NCBI RefSeq assembly: GCF_017084525.1
Contig: NZ_CP070950.1
Coordinates: 3,596,001-3,660,000 of the forward strand
Length of the DNA: 64,000 bases
Direction: 5' to 3'
DNA from: Conexibacter sp. SYSU D00693
GTDB taxonomy: Bacteria; Actinomycetota; Thermoleophilia; Solirubrobacterales; Solirubrobacteraceae
Below the pieces are notes generated by a model. It made no database searches. It was not told the DNA's origin and saw only the letters and a program-made list of their open reading frames with translations. Below are positions 5,559 to 46,067 of this stretch, piece by piece. The first letter of the stretch is position 1, and every line of letters starts with the position of its first letter. Position numbers and translations under genes: made by a program.

Positions 5559-5618
5559 GGTGACGCGACCGTCACCCTGGAGTTCGCCGTCTCAGAGGCG
5601 GTCAACTCCAGGGTGACG
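5559..5618. terminator. Large hairpin downstream of the carboxylase operon, with an alternative pairing
   Basis: A 15-bp perfect inverted repeat pairs 5570-5584 (CGTCACCCTGGAGTT) with 5604-5618, with further CGCC/GGCG pairing inside the loop. GGTGAC at 5559-5564 can instead pair with GTCACC at 5571-5576, so two mutually exclusive stems exist. There is no U tract. It lies about 60 nt past the minus-strand carboxyltransferase stop and before the mug unit, so it is a terminator or attenuator candidate. Confidence 0.5.
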
Positions 5619-20625: not shown

Positions 20626-21282
20626 GTGGACGCGCTGCGCGTGCTCGTCGCCGAGGACCAGGCGCTCCTGCGCCAGGGCGTCGTGCGCCTGCTGCAGGAC
20701 CTGGGCTTCGACGTGGTGGCCGAGGCCGCCGACGCCGACGAGCTGCGCGCCCTCGCCCTCGAGCACCGCCCGGACGTCGCGGTCGTCGACGTCCAGATGC
20801 CGCCGGAGATGACCGACGACGGCCTGCGCGCCGCCCAGGACCTCCGCCGCGAGCTGCCGCGCATGGGCATCCTCGTGCTCTCCCAGTACCTCGAGGAGCA
20901 CTACGCGCTGGCCCTCGTCGCCGACGACCCGCGCGGCGTCGGCTACCTGCTCAAGGACCGCGTGGCCGACGCCGGCGCGCTCGCCGAGGCCGTCCGCCGC
21001 GTCGCCGAGGGCGGCGCCGTCCTCGACCCCGAGGTCGTCCAGCGCATGGTCGGCCGCCGGCGCAGCGACAGCCGCCTCGACGACCTCACCACCCGCGAGC
21101 GCGAGGTCCTCGCCCTGATGGCCGAGGGCAAGTCCAACCACGGCATCGCGGAGGTCCTCGGCGTCACCCCCGCCGCCGTGGAGAAGCACGTCACGGGGAT
21201 CTTCACGAAGCTCGAGCTCGACCGGGCGCCCACGGAGCACCGGCGGGTGATGGCGGTGCTGGCGAAGCTGCGGGCGTCGTAG
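20626..21282 (+). CDS. NarL/FixJ-family response regulator
   Basis: 218 residues: receiver domain with E10-D11, phospho-acceptor D55 (VVDVQMPPE) and Lys110 (YLLKD), then a LuxR-type HTH (TTREREVLALMAEGKSN ... AAVEKHVTGIF). GTG 20626 is 6 nt after TACGTT and 5 residues before the conserved LVAED block. It is divergent from the nitrogen-starvation cluster and convergent, across a repeat array, with a PAS histidine kinase that is its probable partner. Control of the nitrogen cluster is inferred from position and the flanking inverted repeat. Confidence 0.9.
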   Translation: MDALRVLVAEDQALLRQGVVRLLQDLGFDVVAEAADADELRALALEHRPDVAVVDVQMPPEMTDDGLRAAQDLRRELPRMGILVLSQYLEEHYALALVADDPRGVGYLLKDRVADAGALAEAVRRVAEGGAVLDPEVVQRMVGRRRSDSRLDDLTTREREVLALMAEGKSNHGIAEVLGVTPAAVEKHVTGIFTKLELDRAPTEHRRVMAVLAKLRAS

Positions 21283-21402
21283 GGGGGGTCGCGCGGGGTG
21301 GGGGTCCGTGTGGGTGGAGCTCCGCGCGGGTCGCTCGCGGTCCTCCTCGCGCTCGGGGTCCGGCACTGAGGAGGGGAAGGGAGCCGATGCCCGGCCTCTG
21401 CG

Positions 21403-21439
21403 TGACGCCTCGTGCATGCAGGACATGCACGAGGCGTCA
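21403..21439. repeat. Perfect 16-bp hairpin, copy 1
   Basis: TGACGCCTCGTGCATG (21403-21418), loop CAGGA, then its exact reverse complement (21424-21439). It is followed by CGGATCCGCCCCGCGAACCC. It may terminate the upstream regulator transcript. Confidence 0.8.
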
Positions 21440-21837
21440 TCGGGCTCGGATCCGCCCCGCGAACCCGGCGGCGGCCCGCCCTCCCTCTCCCGACGTGCGA
21501 GGCCGCGCCGGCACAAGCCCGGGGGATCGCTCGAGCGGAGCGCCACGAGGGGGTGGAGCTCCGTGCGGGTGGCTCGCGGTGCTCGTGGCGTTCGCTGTTC
21601 GGCACTGAGGAGGGGAGGGCCGGTCGCTCGCGGCGGCGCGGGGCGAGGTGTGACCCCTTGTGCATCCCAGGGGTGCAGAAGCGGTCGCACCTCCCCGGCG
21701 CGGGCGCGTCGGCGTTCGGATCCGCCCCGCGAACCCGGTGGCGGCTTCGCCGTCCTCTTCCTCCGTGTGAACCAGCGACGGCCAGAGCCCGGACCGGCGT
21801 GCGAGCGGACCGCCGCGGGAGCCGAGGTCGGCCTGGT

Positions 21838-21874
21838 TGACGCCTCGTGCATGCAGGACATGCACGAGGCGTCA
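21838..21874. repeat. Perfect 16-bp hairpin, copy 2
   Basis: Identical in stem and loop to the hairpin at 21403-21439 (arms 21838-21853 and 21859-21874), in the same orientation and with the same downstream sequence. It lies 108 nt past the minus-strand histidine kinase stop. Confidence 0.8.
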
Positions 21875-21981
21875 TCGGGCTCGGATCCGCCCCGCGAACC
21901 CGGTGGCGGCTTCGCTCTCCCTCTCCCTACGTGCCAGGCCGCGACGGCACGAGCCCGAGCCCGAGCCCGAGCGGCACGCCC

Positions 21982-23073
21982 TCACGCCCCGCCCTCCACC
22001 GGCAACCCCGCCCGCACCACCGTCCCGCCGCCCACCGGCGAGACCACCTCCAGCGTCCCGCCCAGCACCGCCACGCGGTCCGCCAGGCCGGTCAGCCCGC
22101 TCCCCGCGCCCACCGCCGCGCCGCCGGGGCCGTCGTCGCCCACCTCGACGAGCAGGCGACCGTCGCAGTCCGACGCGCGCACCCACGCGCGCGAGGCGCC
22201 CGCCTGCGCGGCGTGCTTGGCCGCGTTCGTGAGCGCCTCGGCCACGACGAAGTAGGCGCTCACCTCCACCGGGGCGGGCCAGCGGCGGTCCGGGACGTCG
22301 ATGGCCACGGGCAGGGGCGAGCGGGCGGTGAGGGCCTCGACGGCCGCGCCGAGCCCGCGGTTGGTGAGGATCGCGGGATGGATGCCGGCGACGAGCTCGC
22401 GCAGCTCCTGCACGGCCTCGCGGGCGTGGCCCGCGGCCTCGCCGAGGGCGTCGCGGACGGCCTCGTCGTCCTCGCCGACCCGCGCCGTCGCGCCCTGCAG
22501 GAGCATGAGCAGGTGCACGAGGCGCTGCTGGGCGCCGTCGTGGAGGTCGCGGCCGATGCGGCGGCGCTCGGCGTCGGCCGCGGCGACGATGCGCGCCCGG
22601 GAGGCCTCGAGCTCCTCGGCCAACGAGCGGGCGATGCCCTCGCGCAGCCGGGCCTCCTCGGCCTCCAGGCGCTCGGAGATGTCGCGGAAGACGACGACCG
22701 CGCCGCGGCCCTCGGCCATCTGCAGCGGCGAGGAGGAGTAGGCGACGGGGACCATCGAGCCGTCGCGGCGCACGAACCAGTCCTGCTCGACCTGCACCGC
22801 CTCGCCGGTGGCCCGCGGGCGCAGCAGCGGGCACTCCTCGTCGGGGAACGGCGTGCCGTCGGGGCGCTTGTAGTGGATCGTCGGGTGGCTGAGGCGGCCG
22901 AGCAGCTCGCCCGCGTCGTCGTAGCCCAGCGTCAGCACCGCGGCGGGGTTGGCGAAGAGCACGCGCCCGTCGGGATCCACGACGTACACGGCGTCGACGA
23001 CGCTGGCCAGCAGCGCCTGCAGCATGCCGTCGGGCCAGCTGCGCCAGACGTCGGGGGTGGGGAGCGTGCCCAC
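21982..23073 (-). CDS. PAS-containing NarL-partner histidine kinase (HisKA_3 type)
   Basis: 363 residues from GTG 23073. One PAS domain (VDAVYVVDPDGRVLFANPAA) with a PAC segment (FVRRDGSMVPVAYSSSPL), a coiled linker, a HisKA_3 dimerisation domain with the phospho-acceptor in GRDLHDGAQQRLVHLL, and a HATPase (ALTNAAKHA, GSGLTGLADRV). No membrane segment, so it senses a cytoplasmic signal. GTG is 7 nt after TAGCCT (23086-23081). It most likely phosphorylates the NarL-type regulator at 20626, across the repeat array. Confidence 0.88.
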   Translation of the reverse strand: MGTLPTPDVWRSWPDGMLQALLASVVDAVYVVDPDGRVLFANPAAVLTLGYDDAGELLGRLSHPTIHYKRPDGTPFPDEECPLLRPRATGEAVQVEQDWFVRRDGSMVPVAYSSSPLQMAEGRGAVVVFRDISERLEAEEARLREGIARSLAEELEASRARIVAAADAERRRIGRDLHDGAQQRLVHLLMLLQGATARVGEDDEAVRDALGEAAGHAREAVQELRELVAGIHPAILTNRGLGAAVEALTARSPLPVAIDVPDRRWPAPVEVSAYFVVAEALTNAAKHAAQAGASRAWVRASDCDGRLLVEVGDDGPGGAAVGAGSGLTGLADRVAVLGGTLEVVSPVGGGTVVRAGLPVEGGA

Positions 23074-23137
23074 GCCGGGCAGGCTACGGGGGCGACGAGG
23101 ACGACCCCCGGGCGCCGCATTTCCTACGCTGCCCGTC

Positions 23138-24814
23138 TTGACCACGCAGCTGCCCGCACCTGAGGAGACGGCCGTGCCCCGCGAGAGCGACAAGCCGCGC
23201 GTGCACGTCGTCGGTCACCGCAACCCGGACACGGACTCCATCGCGGCAGCGATCGGCTACGCCGAGCTCAAGGGCGCGATCGACGACTCCTGCGAGTACG
23301 TCGCCTGCCGCCTGGGCGAGCTCAACCCGCAGACGTCGTGGGCCCTGGACCGCAGCGGCGCCGAGCTGCCGATGCTGCTCGAGCACGTCCTGCTGCGCGT
23401 GGAGGACGTCATGCGCTCGAGCTTCCCGTCGGTCTCCCACGAGGAGTCGGTGCGCGACGCGGGCCAGCTCATGGTCTCCGAGGGCCTCGAGCTCCTGCCC
23501 GTCGTCGACGACGACGGCGTCCTGCTCGGCGTCCTGACCGAGGAGCGCCTGGCCCGCCGCTACGTGCGCGAGTCGCGCGAGGCCTCGCGGCTGCAGTCGC
23601 CGACGAAGGTCGACGAGATCGTCGAGGGCGTCGCCGGCGAGGTCCTCTACGCCCCCGAGGACCACCGCGCCGCCGGCCGCGTCTGGGTCCTGGCGATGGA
23701 CGTCTCCTCGCTGCTGCGCGACGTCGCCGAGGGCGACGTGGCGGTCGTGGGCGACCGGCCCGACGCGCAGCTGCGCGCGGTGGAGACCGAGGTCGCGCTG
23801 CTCATCCTCTCCAACGACGCCGAGCCCTGCGAGGGGCTGCTCGAGGCGGCCGAGGAGCACCACACCGCGGTCATCCGCACGTCGCTGGACTCCTACGTCG
23901 CGGGCCGCATGGTCACGCTGTCCACGCCGTGCAAGGCGCTGCTGGACCGCGACCCGCTGACCGCCCGGCCCGACGACCTCATCAGCGACGTGCAGGAGGA
24001 GGTCAAGGACGTCTCCTACCGCGGCGCCGTGGTGGTCGACGGCGACCGGCGGCCGATCGGCCTCGTCACCCGCGCCGAGCTCGTGCGTCCGCGCCCGCGC
24101 CGCGTGATCCTCGTGGACCACGCCGAGCAGGCGCAGGCCGTCCAGGGCATCGAGCACGCCGAGATCGTCGAGATCCTCGACCACCACCACATCGGCTCGA
24201 TCGAGACCAAGCTCCCGGTGACGGCGACCTTCGACCCGGTGGGCTCGACGAGCACGCTCGTGGCCGAGCGCTTCCGCAGCCACGGCGTCGAGCCGACGCG
24301 CGAGACGGCGACCATGCTCCTCGCCGCGCTGCTGTCCGACACGGTGATCCTCAACTCGCCGACGACCACCGACCGCGACCGCGTCATGGCCGAGGACCTG
24401 GGCGACCTGCTCGGCCTCGACCCCGTCGAGTTCGGCAGCGCGATGTTCAAGGCGTCCTCCGACCTGACGCGCTACACCGCCGACGAGCTCGTGCAGCGCG
24501 ACGCGAAGAGCTACGAGCTGCCGGGCGGCCAGACGCTGGCCATCGCGCAGGTCGAGGTCGTCGGCGACGGCCTCGCCGACCGCGACGAGGAGCTGCTGCA
24601 GGCGGTGCGCGACCGCTGCGAGCGCGACGCCCACCGGATCTTCGCCCTCATGGTCACCGACGTGGTGGGCAAGGGCACCCGGCTCGTGGTGGCCGGTGAC
24701 GTGGCGGCGGCCGAGCGCGCCTTCGACACCCGGGCCGTCGACGACGTCCTGGACCTGCCGGGCGTCATGAGCCGCAAGAAGCAGGTCGCGCCGCGCCTGC
24801 TCGCGGCGACCTGA
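23138..24814 (+). CDS. ppaC: CBS/DRTGG-containing family II inorganic pyrophosphatase (Mn-dependent)
   Basis: 558 residues from TTG 23138. The DHH domain is split around a regulatory insert: GHRNPDTDSIAAAIGYAELKG at the N-terminus (shown in part), then CBS (LPVVDDDGVLLGVLTEERL), a DRTGG-like region and a second CBS (PIGLVTRAEL), then ILDHHHIGSIET and the DHHA2 C-terminal domain ending SRKKQVAP. It hydrolyses pyrophosphate, and the CBS pair in such enzymes binds adenine nucleotides. TACGCT lies 7 nt before TTG; a GTG 36 nt further in is the alternative start. Confidence 0.9.
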   Translation: MTTQLPAPEETAVPRESDKPRVHVVGHRNPDTDSIAAAIGYAELKGAIDDSCEYVACRLGELNPQTSWALDRSGAELPMLLEHVLLRVEDVMRSSFPSVSHEESVRDAGQLMVSEGLELLPVVDDDGVLLGVLTEERLARRYVRESREASRLQSPTKVDEIVEGVAGEVLYAPEDHRAAGRVWVLAMDVSSLLRDVAEGDVAVVGDRPDAQLRAVETEVALLILSNDAEPCEGLLEAAEEHHTAVIRTSLDSYVAGRMVTLSTPCKALLDRDPLTARPDDLISDVQEEVKDVSYRGAVVVDGDRRPIGLVTRAELVRPRPRRVILVDHAEQAQAVQGIEHAEIVEILDHHHIGSIETKLPVTATFDPVGSTSTLVAERFRSHGVEPTRETATMLLAALLSDTVILNSPTTTDRDRVMAEDLGDLLGLDPVEFGSAMFKASSDLTRYTADELVQRDAKSYELPGGQTLAIAQVEVVGDGLADRDEELLQAVRDRCERDAHRIFALMVTDVVGKGTRLVVAGDVAAAERAFDTRAVDDVLDLPGVMSRKKQVAPRLLAAT

Positions 24815-38396: not shown

Positions 38397-40042
38397 GCCA
38401 GGCCACCGCCTCCGTGGACGTCGTCGTCCCGACCGTCCGCGGCGCGGCGCTCGCCCGGTGCCTGGAGGCGCTGGCCCGTGCGGCCGGGCCGCCCGGCGGC
38501 GGCGACGTCGTGCTGGCTGACGACCGGCGTGGCGAGGTCGCGCCCCTGCTGGACGGCACGCCCGTGCCGGCGGCGCTGGCGGGCCGGGTGCGCGTGGTGC
38601 GCTCGGGCGGCCGCGGGCCGGCGGCGGCCCGCAACGCCGGCTGGCGCGCGTGCTCGCGCGCGTGGGTGGCGTTCGTCGACGACGACGTCGAGGTGGACGT
38701 CGACTGGGCCGACCGGCTGGCCGACGACCTGGTCGGCGCCGGTCCGCAGGTCGGGGGCGTGCAGGGCGCCATCAGCGTGCCGCTGGCCCTCGCCCGCCGC
38801 CCGACCGACCGCGAGCGCCACGTCGAGGGGCTCGAGACGGCGGCGTGGGCGACGGCCGACATGGCCTACCGCCGGCTCGCGCTCGAGGCGGTCGGCGGCT
38901 TCGACGAGGGCTTCCCGCGCGCGTACCGCGAGGACGCGGACCTCGCGCTGCGCGTCAGGCAGGCCGGGTGGGAGCTCGTGCGCGGCACCCGGCGCGTCCG
39001 CCACCCCGTCGGCTCGGCGCCGTGGACGTCGTCGTTGACGCTGCAGCGCGGCAACGCCGACGACCCGCGGATGGCGGCCAAGCACGGCCCCTCGTGGCGC
39101 ACGCTCGCCGACGTGCCCCCGGGTCGTCGCCGCCGCCACGCGCTCGTCACCGCGGCCGGCGCCGTCGCCGTCGCGTGCAAGGTGCCAGGCACCTTGCATG
39201 CACGCGCATGCAAGGTGCCTGGCACCTTCCACGGCGCTGCGGCCGTCTGGGCCCTCGGGACGGCGGAGCTGTGCTGGGCGCGGATCGCGCCGGGGCCGCG
39301 GACGCCGCGGGAGGTCGCGCGGATGGTCGCGACGTCGGTGCCGATGCCGCCGGTGGCGGTCGCGCACTTCGCGATCGGGAGCGTCAAGGCGCTGCCGCTG
39401 CGCCGCGCCCGGCGGCGGGCGACGCGGCCGGTCAAGGCCGTCCTGCTGGACCGCGACGGCACGCTCGTCCACGACGTCCCCTACAACGGCGACCCGGACG
39501 CGGTCGCGCCGATCGCCGGCGCGCGCGAGGCGCTGGACCGGCTGCGCGTCGCCGGCCTGCCGCTCGGCGTCGTCTCCAACCAGAGCGGGATCGCGCGCGG
39601 ACTGCTCACGACCGACGAGGTCGACGGGGTCCAGGCGCGCGTGGCGGCGGAGCTCGGGCCCTTCGGCGTGCTGCTGCACTGCCCCCACGGCCCGGGCGAC
39701 GGCTGCGCCTGCCGCAAGCCCGCGCCCGGCATGGTCGTCCAGGCCGCGCGCGAGCTCGGCGTGCGGCCGGAGGACTGCGTCGTCGTCGGCGACATCGGCG
39801 CCGACGTCGAGGCGGCCCGCGCCGCGGGTGCCCGCGGCATCCTCGTCCCCACCCCGGTCACCCGCCTCGAGGAGGTCCGCGACGCCGACACGGTCTGCCG
39901 GACCCTCGGTGCCGCGGTCGACCGGATCCTGTCCTGGAACGGCGAGGACCCGCGCACGGTGCCGAGCACCGTGCGTGCACGCACGGTGCCTGGCACCGTG
40001 CGCCGGGACGAGCGGTTCACGAGGGCGGAGGTGGTCGCGTGA
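38393..40042 (+). CDS. Fusion of GT2 glycosyltransferase and GmhB-like HAD phosphatase, with two palindromic inserts
   Basis: 549 residues. Residues 1 to about 300 are a GT-A glycosyltransferase (VDVVVPTVRGAALARCLEAL, VAFVDDDVEVD as DxD, YREDADLALRVRQAGW as the ED base). From about 347 there is a HisB/GmhB-type HAD domain: VLLDRDGTL, VSNQSGIARG, the zinc loop HCPHGPGDGCACRKP and GDIGADVEAA, expected to dephosphorylate D-glycero-D-manno-heptose 1,7-bisphosphate. Two in-frame palindromes encode CKVPGT- and TVPGT-rich peptides, one in the GT2 C-terminal segment and one near the protein end. GTGA overlaps on both sides. Confidence 0.88.
   Translation: MSQATASVDVVVPTVRGAALARCLEALARAAGPPGGGDVVLADDRRGEVAPLLDGTPVPAALAGRVRVVRSGGRGPAAARNAGWRACSRAWVAFVDDDVEVDVDWADRLADDLVGAGPQVGGVQGAISVPLALARRPTDRERHVEGLETAAWATADMAYRRLALEAVGGFDEGFPRAYREDADLALRVRQAGWELVRGTRRVRHPVGSAPWTSSLTLQRGNADDPRMAAKHGPSWRTLADVPPGRRRRHALVTAAGAVAVACKVPGTLHARACKVPGTFHGAAAVWALGTAELCWARIAPGPRTPREVARMVATSVPMPPVAVAHFAIGSVKALPLRRARRRATRPVKAVLLDRDGTLVHDVPYNGDPDAVAPIAGAREALDRLRVAGLPLGVVSNQSGIARGLLTTDEVDGVQARVAAELGPFGVLLHCPHGPGDGCACRKPAPGMVVQAARELGVRPEDCVVVGDIGADVEAARAAGARGILVPTPVTRLEEVRDADTVCRTLGAAVDRILSWNGEDPRTVPSTVRARTVPGTVRRDERFTRAEVVA
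39176..39229 (+). repeat. In-frame palindromic insert 1 (54 nt)
   Basis: 18 codons reading CKVPGTLHARACKVPGTF. The core is a perfect 23-bp inverted repeat (39179-39201 / 39206-39228) around ACGC. Each arm is itself a palindrome built on GGTGCCWGGCACC. Removing it leaves a smooth hydrophobic segment (AGAVAVA then HGAAAVWAL). Confidence 0.8.
39952..40003 (+). repeat. In-frame palindromic insert 2 (52 nt)
   Basis: A 26-bp inverted repeat with two central mismatches (39952-39977 / 39978-40003). It encodes RTVPSTVRARTVPGTVR near the end of the HAD domain. It has the same nested design and GGTGCC...GGCACC core as insert 1, 0.7 kb away, but with CG replacing AA/TT outside the core. Confidence 0.8.
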
Positions 40043-44980: not shown

Positions 44981-45951
44981 GCCGCCCCCGCGTCCTCGTC
45001 CTGCGCGCGCTCGGGCTCGGCGACCTCCTGGCCGCCGTGCCCGCGCTGCGCGGGATCGCCCGCGCGTTCCCCGACCACCGCCGCCAGCTCGCCTGCCCGG
45101 CGCCGCTGGCGCCGCTGGCGCACCTCACCGGCGCGGTCGACGAGGTCGTGGACGTGCGCTGGGTGCACGCCGTCGGCGACGTGCTGCCCGAGGCGGTCCA
45201 CGGCGCCGACGTCGCGGTCAACCTCCACGGCGCCGGCCCGCAGTCGACCGCGGCGCTGGCCGCCACCCGGCCGCGGCGGCTCATCGCCTTCGGGGTCGGT
45301 GGTGCGCGCCCCTACCCGACGGCGCTGCACGAGCGCGAGCGGTGGTGCGCGCTGCTCGCCGACCACGCCATCGCGGCCGACCCCGACGACCTGCTGCTGC
45401 GCGCGCCGCCCGCCATGCCGCCGCGGGTCGCCCCCGGCGCGACGGTCGTGCACCCGGGCGCGGCGTCGCCCGCGCGCCGCTGGCCCGCCACGCGCTGGGC
45501 CGCCGTCGCGCGCGCCGAGGAGGACGCCGGCCGCCCGGCCGTCCTCACCGGCAGCGCCGCAGAGCGCCCGCTGGCCGAGGAGGTCGCCCAGCTCGCCGGC
45601 CTGCCGCCCGGCCGCGTCCTGGCCGGGCGCACCGACGTGCTCGGCCTGGGCGGCGTCGTCGCCGCCGCGGGCCGCGTCGTCTCCGGCGACACGGGCGTCG
45701 CCCACCTCGCCTACGCCTTGGGCCGGCCCACCGTCACGCTCTTCGGCCCGACGCCGCCGGAGCAGTGGGGCCCGCCGGGGCTGGAGCGCCACGTCGTGCT
45801 GCGCGGCGGCGAGGGCGCGGGCGACCCGCACGCCGCGGAGCCGGACCCGCGGCTGCTGGCGATCGACGCAGCCGACGTCGTCGCCGCGCTGGCGGGGCTG
45901 AGCTGCGCTCGGACGGGCGCGGGGGACGCCGCGGTCGCGGTCCGGCAGTGA
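44968..45951 (+). CDS. GT9 heptosyltransferase-like glycosyltransferase (second)
   Basis: 327 residues. GTG 44968 is in frame just before RVLVLRALGLGDLLAAVPAL, and it overlaps the SDR end by 13 nt. Family motifs: VNLHGAGPQSTAAL, VVHPGAASPARRWP, SGDTGVAHLAYALGRP, TLFGPTPPEQWGP. It lacks the C-terminal Cys cluster of the first GT9 protein, so the two should use different acceptors. Last gene of the operon; a hairpin follows at 45990-46024. Confidence 0.86.
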   Translation: MAAVGRPRVLVLRALGLGDLLAAVPALRGIARAFPDHRRQLACPAPLAPLAHLTGAVDEVVDVRWVHAVGDVLPEAVHGADVAVNLHGAGPQSTAALAATRPRRLIAFGVGGARPYPTALHERERWCALLADHAIAADPDDLLLRAPPAMPPRVAPGATVVHPGAASPARRWPATRWAAVARAEEDAGRPAVLTGSAAERPLAEEVAQLAGLPPGRVLAGRTDVLGLGGVVAAAGRVVSGDTGVAHLAYALGRPTVTLFGPTPPEQWGPPGLERHVVLRGGEGAGDPHAAEPDPRLLAIDAADVVAALAGLSCARTGAGDAAVAVRQ

Positions 45952-45989
45952 GGAGCGTGGGCGTCTTGACGAGGCCCCCTGCATCGAGT

Positions 45990-46024
45990 GGCGGATCTTC
46001 CGCCTGGAGGACGGAGAATCCGCC
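45990..46024. terminator. Bidirectional terminator-like hairpin
   Basis: GGCGGATCTTCCG (45990-46002) pairs with CGGAGAATCCGCC (46012-46024) in 11 of 13 positions, loop 9 nt. It sits between the end of the plus-strand heptose operon and the end of the minus-strand phosphoesterase gene. Confidence 0.6.
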
Positions 46025-46067
46025 GACCGATGCCCAACGGGCCCGGACGACCGTGACCGGCGAACCC

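What the first reader, a model, noticed from the sequence alone, without database searches (positions are those of the whole stretch)
21283..21981. Intergenic repeat array with identical 16-bp hairpins
About three cassettes share two blocks; two hairpins 435 nt apart are identical while the intervening copy is decayed. The array separates a response regulator and its likely kinase. It resembles a REP/BIME- or MITE-type element rather than a gene, and no such family is known to me for this lineage.
Basis: seen in the sequence. Interest (0 to 1): 0.55.

Follow-up and report, generated by a model that had tools for sequence, protein, structure and literature searches.

The report
Nuclease-gene hairpins scattered between genes
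The three-unit array is made of small DNA hairpins that recur across this bacterium's chromosome, and each of the six main hairpin types also brackets a gene for a predicted DNA-binding nuclease, which suggests a mobile-DNA system resembling REP elements but with a different enzyme.

Summary
The array (21283-21981) is real. It holds two complete units and one truncated unit. A complete unit is a ~95-bp repeat ("M-C"), a long hairpin, then M-C inverted. The two identical hairpins (type H1) are confirmed. The middle one is not decayed: it is a well-paired hairpin of a sister type. H1 has 20 sites and M-C 90 matches in this 4.43-Mb genome. Relatives gave only a few weaker matches, and an exact H1 core search of 84,980 species found none. 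In two congeners the flanking response-regulator and kinase genes overlap at their stops. So this is not a local duplication.

In fetched loci, six hairpin types (H1-H6) each bracket one gene of a single family: an AbiEi-like DNA-binding domain plus a Vsr-like (DUF559/MTES_1575) nuclease domain. In five of six the stop codon is the hairpin's own TGA. AbiEi proteins bind paired 23-bp inverted repeats (PMC7319586). I conclude the hairpins are terminal and recognition repeats of nuclease-bearing elements, and the window holds solo copies. The layout parallels REP-RAYT-REP with a different protein. Cleavage and mobility are inferred; generality beyond this genome is untested.

The parts
20629..21282 (+). 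LuxR-type response regulator gene; its stop is the left border of the array
   Evidence: Pfam Response_reg 4.5e-16 and GerE 9.4e-13; ORF ends 21282
21313..21406 (+). M-C inverted-repeat arm, unit 1 left
   Evidence: model R2 E 8e-7 (G000:3617313-3617406); nhmmer
21400..21442 (+). H1 hairpin copy 1 (stem TGACGCCTCGTGCATG, loop CAGGA)
   Evidence: E 8.8e-16; this copy is in the model; z -6.5
21451..21546 (-). M-C arm, unit 1 right
21553..21645 (+). M-C arm, unit 2 left
   Evidence: junction with the previous arm 6 nt
21642..21696 (+).
   Evidence: z -8.2, 0 of 200 shuffles; relatives
21722..21815 (-). M-C arm, unit 2 right
21835..21877 (+). H1 hairpin copy 2, in truncated unit 3 (no left arm)
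   Evidence: E 8.5e-17; this copy is in the model; z -7.6
21887..21981 (-). M-C arm, unit 3 right
21982..23193 (-). PAS/HisKA_3/HATPase histidine kinase gene; its stop is the right border of the array
   Evidence: Pfam

Best explanation
The window array is a cluster of solo terminal hairpins from a family of nuclease-bearing elements, packed inside a companion repeat (M-C) that forms long inverted pairs. In the gene-bearing form the order is hairpin - gene - same hairpin, and the gene's stop codon is usually the TGA inside the 3' hairpin. The protein (~290 aa) has an AbiEi-like winged-helix N-terminus, expected to bind its own paired inverted repeat, and a Vsr-like PD-(D/E)XK C-terminus, expected to cut DNA. 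Proposed mechanism: each protein recognises its own hairpin type, nicks or cuts there or at a target, and hairpin copies (with or without the gene) are copied into new sites by break repair or replication. They accumulate at gene 3' ends, where insertion does least harm and where paired hairpins may act as two-way transcription barriers or mRNA-end protectors. Shown: dispersal, near species restriction, empty sites in congeners, 3'-end location, one bracketed gene for each of six hairpin types, stop codon inside the hairpin in five, and correlated divergence of protein and hairpin. Inferred: binding, cutting, transposition, and any effect on transcription.
For: Dispersal: H1 at 20 sites with E <= 4.1e-10 and 24 with E <= 1.3e-5 (19 of the 20 were in the model, so the model-free support is BLAST and the pattern count, 83 against 24 for the reversed control); M-C 90 matches (24 copies were in the model), 94 copies at 55 fetched loci, with 26 + to - pairs, 9 near-abutting - to + junctions and 4 same-strand neighbours within 480 bp.

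Insertion: RR and kinase stops overlap in G002 (-23 nt) and G006 (-4 nt), are 45 nt apart in a Patulibacter MAG and overlap (-26) in Solirubrobacter soli; 699 nt here. A second element after ruvB: 431 nt here; 0, -4, -4, 62 and 963 nt in the five congeners that keep the neighbour.

Gene link: H1/L072, H6/L107, H4/L279, H3/L286, H2/L291, H5/L300. At all 12 gene ends the best of the six hairpin consensuses is the one assigned to that gene (4-31% mismatches; 0 of 200 shuffles as good at each end). Stop codon inside the hairpin in 5 of 6. Pfam AbiEi_1/AbiEi_4, DUF559, MTES_1575 in the seven proteins scanned; PDB profile matches 3hrl E 0.0011 and 3r3p mobile intron protein E 0.034. Invariant D222, E233, D235, H240, D249 in eight proteins.

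Coevolution: Spearman 0.54, 27 of 5000 permutations as high.

Precedent: AbiEi binds two 23-bp inverted repeats 3 bp apart (PMC7319586 passages); arms here are ~19-23 bp, loops 3-7 nt.

H1+H6 covariation 0.264 against 0.105 shuffled, 0 of 500.
Against: No target duplication seen by eye at 26 pairs. No experiment shows nuclease activity or movement. MTES_1575 is below its curated cut-off in 7 of 7 and DUF559 not above its cut-off in 2 of 7 (one of these not listed at all); the PDB hits are weak. Covariation is not above shuffles within H1 alone or in H2. H5 has no TGA and its 3' copy is half decayed (31% mismatches); the 5' copies of H1, H2, H3 and H6 are also diverged (18-26%). Paralogues L096 and L106 have a hairpin only at the 5' end, and L106's fits none of H1-H6 (best 47% mismatches). 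One distant homologue on a Tsukamurella plasmid has no bracketing hairpins. The M-C arm has no identified enzyme. The gene-bearing loci were fetched because they carry hairpins; of 24 hairpin loci fetched after the lead (20, 4) 4 held the gene.
Confidence: 0.6

Rival explanations
1. Orphan REP/BIME repeats: ordinary REP-like palindromes spread by RAYT (Y1) transposases, with the nuclease genes merely sitting beside them.
For: Mostly intergenic, 3'-end biased (29 convergent, 21 tandem, 4 divergent, 1 inside a predicted gene of 55 loci), in mosaic clusters, nearly species-specific; three Y1_Tnp genes are present. The location pattern matches published REPs (PMC3733652, sections 15-16 read).
Against: The three Y1 genes carry their own different flanking repeats; no H1-H6 or M-C match better than short chance-level stretches there. 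No unpaired GTAG/CGTC tag. Each of six H types brackets a gene of another family on both sides, with the stop codon inside the hairpin in five.
Confidence: 0.15
2. Operator sites: the hairpins are binding sites of AbiEi-like regulators, spread as a regulon, with nothing mobile.
For: AbiEi proteins autoregulate through paired inverted repeats (PMC7319586 passages); one hairpin lies at the 5' end of each gene.
Against: Dispersed copies sit after stop codons and are rare between divergent genes. A second copy sits at the 3' end of the genes. The inserts are absent from congeners at two conserved gene pairs.
Confidence: 0.1
3. MITEs: the M-C inverted repeats are the terminal repeats of a miniature transposon that carries hairpins as cargo and is moved by an unseen DDE transposase.
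For: 26 inverted pairs of 237-415 bp with ~95-bp arms, and tandem units that nearly abut.
Against: No target duplications seen at the pairs; 11 of 17 H1 loci have no M-C hit in the fetched stretch; no M-C-flanked transposase was met (not searched for systematically).
Confidence: 0.1
4. Functional terminators or 3'-end stabilisers kept by selection, with sequence likeness from gene conversion.
For: Strong hairpins close to stop codons; bias to convergent pairs (29 against 4, p = 1.1e-5 under 1:1).
Against: No T-run in the window array (0 terminator-like sites); few and weaker matches in relatives; terminators need no conserved stem sequence.
Confidence: 0.05

Closest known systems
REP / REPtron (REP-RAYT-REP) and BIME
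   Same: Short intergenic palindromes, many solo copies, mosaic clusters, 3'-end bias, two copies bracketing one gene, protein and repeat varying together.
   Different: The bracketed gene encodes an AbiEi-like plus Vsr-like protein instead of a Y1 tyrosine transposase; no GTAG/CGTC tag; stems of about 19-23 bp; the stop codon usually lies inside the hairpin.
TIRYT/TIRtron (PMC3733652)
   Same: A nuclease gene flanked by inverted repeats that can also form a dispersed family.
   Different: The enzyme there is a Y1 tyrosine transposase; here it is a predicted PD-(D/E)XK, Vsr-like domain with an AbiEi winged helix.
Vsr-like (EDxHD) free-standing homing endonucleases
   Same: Related nuclease fold suggested by the weak profile match to PDB 3r3p; selfish intergenic insertion is plausible.
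   Different: Terminal hairpins with many solo copies are not a described part of homing genes (from recall, no test here).
AbiEi antitoxins (type IV toxin-antitoxin)
   Same: N-terminal winged-helix domain; AbiEi proteins bind paired 23-bp inverted repeats.
   Different: Fused to a nuclease-like domain and lying between hairpins; no AbiEii partner was looked for.
MITE / ERIC / BOX elements
   Same: Non-coding, inverted-repeat, modular intergenic insertions (ERIC and BOX from recall).
   Different: No target duplication seen, no known parent, and hairpin modules of at least six types occur within the unit.

Membership tests
REP (RAYT type) | Palindromic, intergenic, dispersed within one genome | tested here: met
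REP (RAYT type) | Unpaired GTAG or CGTC tag at one end | tested here: not met
   In the H1+H6 set the base TGAC/GTCA is paired (22, 25, 24 and 25 of 25 distinct copies at its four pairs) and CGTC lies inside the stem
REP (RAYT type) | Cognate Y1 transposase gene flanked by the same repeat | tested here: not met
   3 Y1_Tnp genes found; none flanked by H1-H6 or M-C
REP (RAYT type) | Usually more than 100 copies per genome (PMC2817692 abstract) | tested here: not met
   H1 20-24 sites; H2+H5 63 and H3+H4 58 matched stretches, both strands counted
BIME | Clusters of palindromes in alternating orientation with linker modules | tested here: inconclusive
   M-C alternates (+ - + -) with hairpins between, but the hairpins are not REPs by the rows above
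MITE | Short element with terminal inverted repeats | tested here: met
   26 pairs, 237-415 bp
MITE | Target-site duplication | tested here: not met
   none seen by eye at 26 pairs
MITE | Parent transposon with the same ends | not tested
Intrinsic terminator | Stem-loop followed by a T-run | tested here: not met
   0 found in window 21200-22060; other loci not scanned
AbiEi family | AbiEi winged-helix domain in the protein | tested here: met
   AbiEi_4 or AbiEi_1 above cut-off in 6 of 7 proteins scanned (L291 has AbiEi_1 at 21.4 against 22.2; L300 not scanned with Pfam); PADLOC AbiEi 1.1e-26 for L072
AbiEi family | Binds paired inverted repeats next to its gene | not testable with these tools
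   Repeats of fitting size are present; binding needs an assay
Rfam RNA families | Match above gathering score | tested here: not met
   None over the array or, among 20 fetched loci scanned, over M-C or hairpins; the one match above gathering was RNase P RNA in L230

The most novel reading that the evidence does not exclude
A previously undescribed class of bacterial mobile element: a single AbiEi-winged-helix/Vsr-like nuclease gene bracketed by its own operator-like hairpins, in which protein and hairpin diverge together into at least six parallel lineages within one genome, spawning solo hairpins that target 3'-3' gene junctions and are shuffled like cassettes inside a second inverted-repeat element.
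Probability: 0.45. Interest if true: 0.85.

Novelty: new variant of a known kind. Interest (0 to 1): 0.7.

Why it matters
REP-like repeats have mainly been explained by one enzyme class, Y1 tyrosine transposases, and CGTC-tagged REPs have no known enzyme (PMC3733652). A second enzyme type, with a predicted sequence-reading domain fused to a nuclease-like domain and a matching hairpin for each paralogue, would give such orphan repeats a candidate mover. It would also suggest a role for AbiEi/DUF559 genes that annotation calls antitoxins or unknown, and offer six natural protein-site pairs to test in vitro.

Tried and rejected
Local tandem duplication only: rejected, since the repeats are genome-wide; tandem growth does occur (L069, 313-bp unit). 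RAYT-driven REP: the three Y1 genes carry other repeats. Intrinsic terminator: no T-run in the window array. Rfam RNA: none. Phage, plasmid or viral origin: no match for the array in plasmids or phages, no exact H1 core in viral contigs, no viral or phage relative of the nuclease. Exact H1 core in 84,980 species: 0 (the window's own record may be left out there). Autonomous M-C element between 4021281 and 4024550: two of the intervening genes are enoyl-CoA hydratase- and arginase-like, so not pursued. Strand of H1: 16 of 20 best-scoring strands are +, not interpretable. Literature: seven listings looking for such repeats, or for DUF559/AbiEi tied to repeats or mobile elements, showed none; two were for background and one (105) gave the AbiEi paper. 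PMC3733652: passages and sections 15-16 read; PMC2817692 and PMC7319586: passages; all others: listings only.

Results against my reading: no better-than-shuffle covariation within H1 or H2; weak Pfam/PDB scores; Tsukamurella homologue without hairpins; L096 and L106 bracketed on one side only; 20 of 24 later-fetched hairpin loci without the gene; G006 has 963 nt after ruvB and in G001 (L275) the neighbour was not found. For the regulator-kinase pair I examined seven relatives' loci; three (L146, L261, L262) do not show the convergent pair and three more loci returned (L263-L265) were not examined. One search misoriented L273 and L276; one search mends this.

Full report
WHAT IS THERE. The window lies at 3596001-3660000 of a single-contig 4.43-Mb genome. 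The nearest named kinase relatives are a Patulibacter MAG and Solirubrobacter soli (58% identity), so the order is probably Solirubrobacterales (inference). The array fills the 699 nt between the stop codons of a LuxR-type response regulator and a convergent PAS/HisKA_3 kinase. It holds two hairpins identical over 37 nt (H1), a third hairpin of a sister type with z = -8.2, and five copies of a ~95-nt repeat, M-C, in the order + - + - -.

IT IS DISPERSED. A covariance model of H1 finds 20 sites at E <= 4.1e-10 and 24 at E <= 1.3e-5. Nineteen of the 20 were in the model, so their scores are partly by construction; the sites were first found by BLAST and by a plain pattern (83 against 24 for the reversed control at up to 2 mismatches). 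A sequence model of M-C, built from 24 copies, finds 90 matches at E <= 0.001. On the stretches I fetched, nhmmer gives 94 M-C copies at 55 loci (E <= 0.05 in that set). Among neighbours within 480 bp, 26 pairs are + then - (units of 237-415 bp), 9 are - then + with 9 nt overlap to 32 nt gap (tandem units), and 4 are in the same orientation. Between M-C arms lie hairpins of several types: H1 TGACGCCTCGTGCATG, H2 GTGACCCTGTCATCTCCGGCGT, H3 CGTGACCCTGGAGTTGACCGCC, H4 CGTGAGTGGGGACTTGCGCTCG, H5 CATCCGTTGGCGGATTCTCCGC, and others; H6 GAGGTGTGACCGTTCGAGCATCC is best seen at L097 and L107. H2+H5 give 63 matched stretches and H3+H4 give 58 genome-wide; palindromes can match on both strands, so sites are fewer. 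Six of 17 H1 loci have M-C hits in the fetched stretch and 11 do not.

IT IS NEARLY SPECIES-RESTRICTED. R1 scored 7 of 61 genomes including this one; the six others were single loci at E 2.7e-4 or weaker. R2 scored 6 of 39 including this one; the others had 1-3 matches each, best E 5.9e-6 in congener G004, with one each in congeners G003 and G005; congeners G001, G002 and G006 (95-96% complete) had none. H2+H5 scored only this genome of 61 (at most 14 candidates scored per genome). An exact search for the H1 core found none in the collection of 84,980 species and none in viral contigs; the array has no match in the plasmid and phage collections.

IT WAS INSERTED. Of seven relatives' loci examined, four keep the convergent regulator-kinase pair. 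In congeners G002 and G006 the genes overlap at their stops (-23 and -4 nt); a Patulibacter MAG has 45 nt and S. soli -26 nt. A second element, after ruvB, occupies most of a 431-nt gap. Five of the six congeners keep the same neighbour (matched over its last 85-87 residues), with gaps of 0, -4, -4, 62 and 963 nt; in the sixth (G001, L275) the neighbour was not found. So three congeners have no gap there, one a short gap, and one a larger gap that I did not analyse beyond finding no significant M-C hit.

WHERE IT SITS. With a simple codon-usage gene caller, 55 M-C loci split 29 convergent, 21 tandem, 4 divergent, 1 inside a predicted gene. Sixteen H1 sites outside the window split 7 convergent, 9 tandem, 0 divergent. 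29 against 4 has p = 1.1e-5 under 1:1. This is the pattern described for REPs (PMC3733652, sections 15 and 16 read).

THE GENE LINK. At 962624-963493 a 290-aa gene lies between two H1 copies. Its relatives in fetched loci lie between two H6 copies (L107), two H4 copies (L279), two H3 copies (L286), two H2 copies (L291), and a full plus a half-decayed H5 copy (L300). As a check I scored all six consensuses at both ends of each gene: at 12 of 12 ends the best one is the assigned type, with 4-31% mismatches, and 0 of 200 shuffles did as well at each end. In H1, H2, H3, H4 and H6 the stop codon is the TGA at the hairpin base. Two further paralogues, L096 and L106, follow an M-C copy plus a 5' hairpin only; the L096 hairpin is H1-like (30% mismatches), the L106 one fits none of the six. 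A fragment lies at L031. The same profile finds no gene at E <= 1e-4 in the 64-kb window or in the 80 actinobacterial loci. Of 24 hairpin loci fetched after this lead, 4 held the gene. The proteins combine AbiEi-type winged-helix hits with DUF559/MTES_1575 hits (seven proteins; MTES_1575 is below its curated cut-off in all 7, DUF559 above it in 5 of 7). A profile of eight sequences weakly matches PDB 3hrl (0.0011) and 3r3p, a mobile intron protein (0.034). Protein and hairpin similarity are correlated over eight gene-hairpin pairs, Spearman 0.54, 27 of 5000 permutations as high.

WHY THIS MAKES SENSE. AbiEi binds two 23-bp inverted repeats 3 bp apart, and its relative Rv2827c likewise binds pairs of 23-bp inverted repeats (PMC7319586, passages). 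The hairpins here have arms of about 19-23 bp and loops of 3-7 nt. So they look like operator-type sites of the protein they bracket, and the nuclease-like domain offers a way to copy them. Base pairing in the H1+H6 set shows covariation of 0.264 against 0.105 in shuffles (0 of 500), with the caveat that related copies can exceed shuffles. Within H1 alone and in H2 it does not; in H2 left and right arm variants appear to assort freely.

LIMITS. Binding, cutting and movement are inferred. No target duplication was found by eye. The loci with genes were fetched because they hold hairpins. 'Not in print' rests on searches of one open-access library.

Noticed in passing
window 45896-46033: A further M-C copy (45896-45994) followed by an H5-type hairpin (45981-46033), called 'inside' a predicted gene by the rough caller.
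   Followed up: partly
window 5566-5612: An H3-like hairpin copy (G000:3601566-3601612).
   Followed up: no
window 39182-39996: Three GTGCC(A/T)GGCAC palindromes like those flanking one of the genome's Y1 transposase genes.
   Followed up: no
L066, L067, L068: Three Y1 (RAYT/TIRYT-like) transposase genes, each with its own palindromic flanking repeats (GTGCCAGGCAC-like; GGGGACTGTCCCC; clustered GGGTCAGACCCC). The first two palindromes also lie at the edges of some M-C elements (L098, L229, L236).
   Followed up: partly
L069 1399-2046: A second tandem array: a ~313-bp unit with H1 and H2 hairpins is duplicated.
   Followed up: partly
G000 1.25-2.9 Mb: H1 is scarce here: 1 of 17 loci (2460747), while M-C is not. 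Not tested formally; the interval was chosen after seeing the data.
   Followed up: no
A5 (15 H2 hairpins): Left-arm and right-arm variants of H2 are combined almost as in random shuffles, as if arms are exchanged between copies.
   Followed up: no
L257 (G000:1-2961): An SbcC-like gene; SbcCD normally attacks long palindromes (from recall), yet this genome keeps many.
   Followed up: no
L088, L091: Single well-paired hairpins sharing CGCCTCGTG-like arms with H1 in two relatives (G027, G052), E 2.7e-4 and 0.003; possibly chance.
   Followed up: partly
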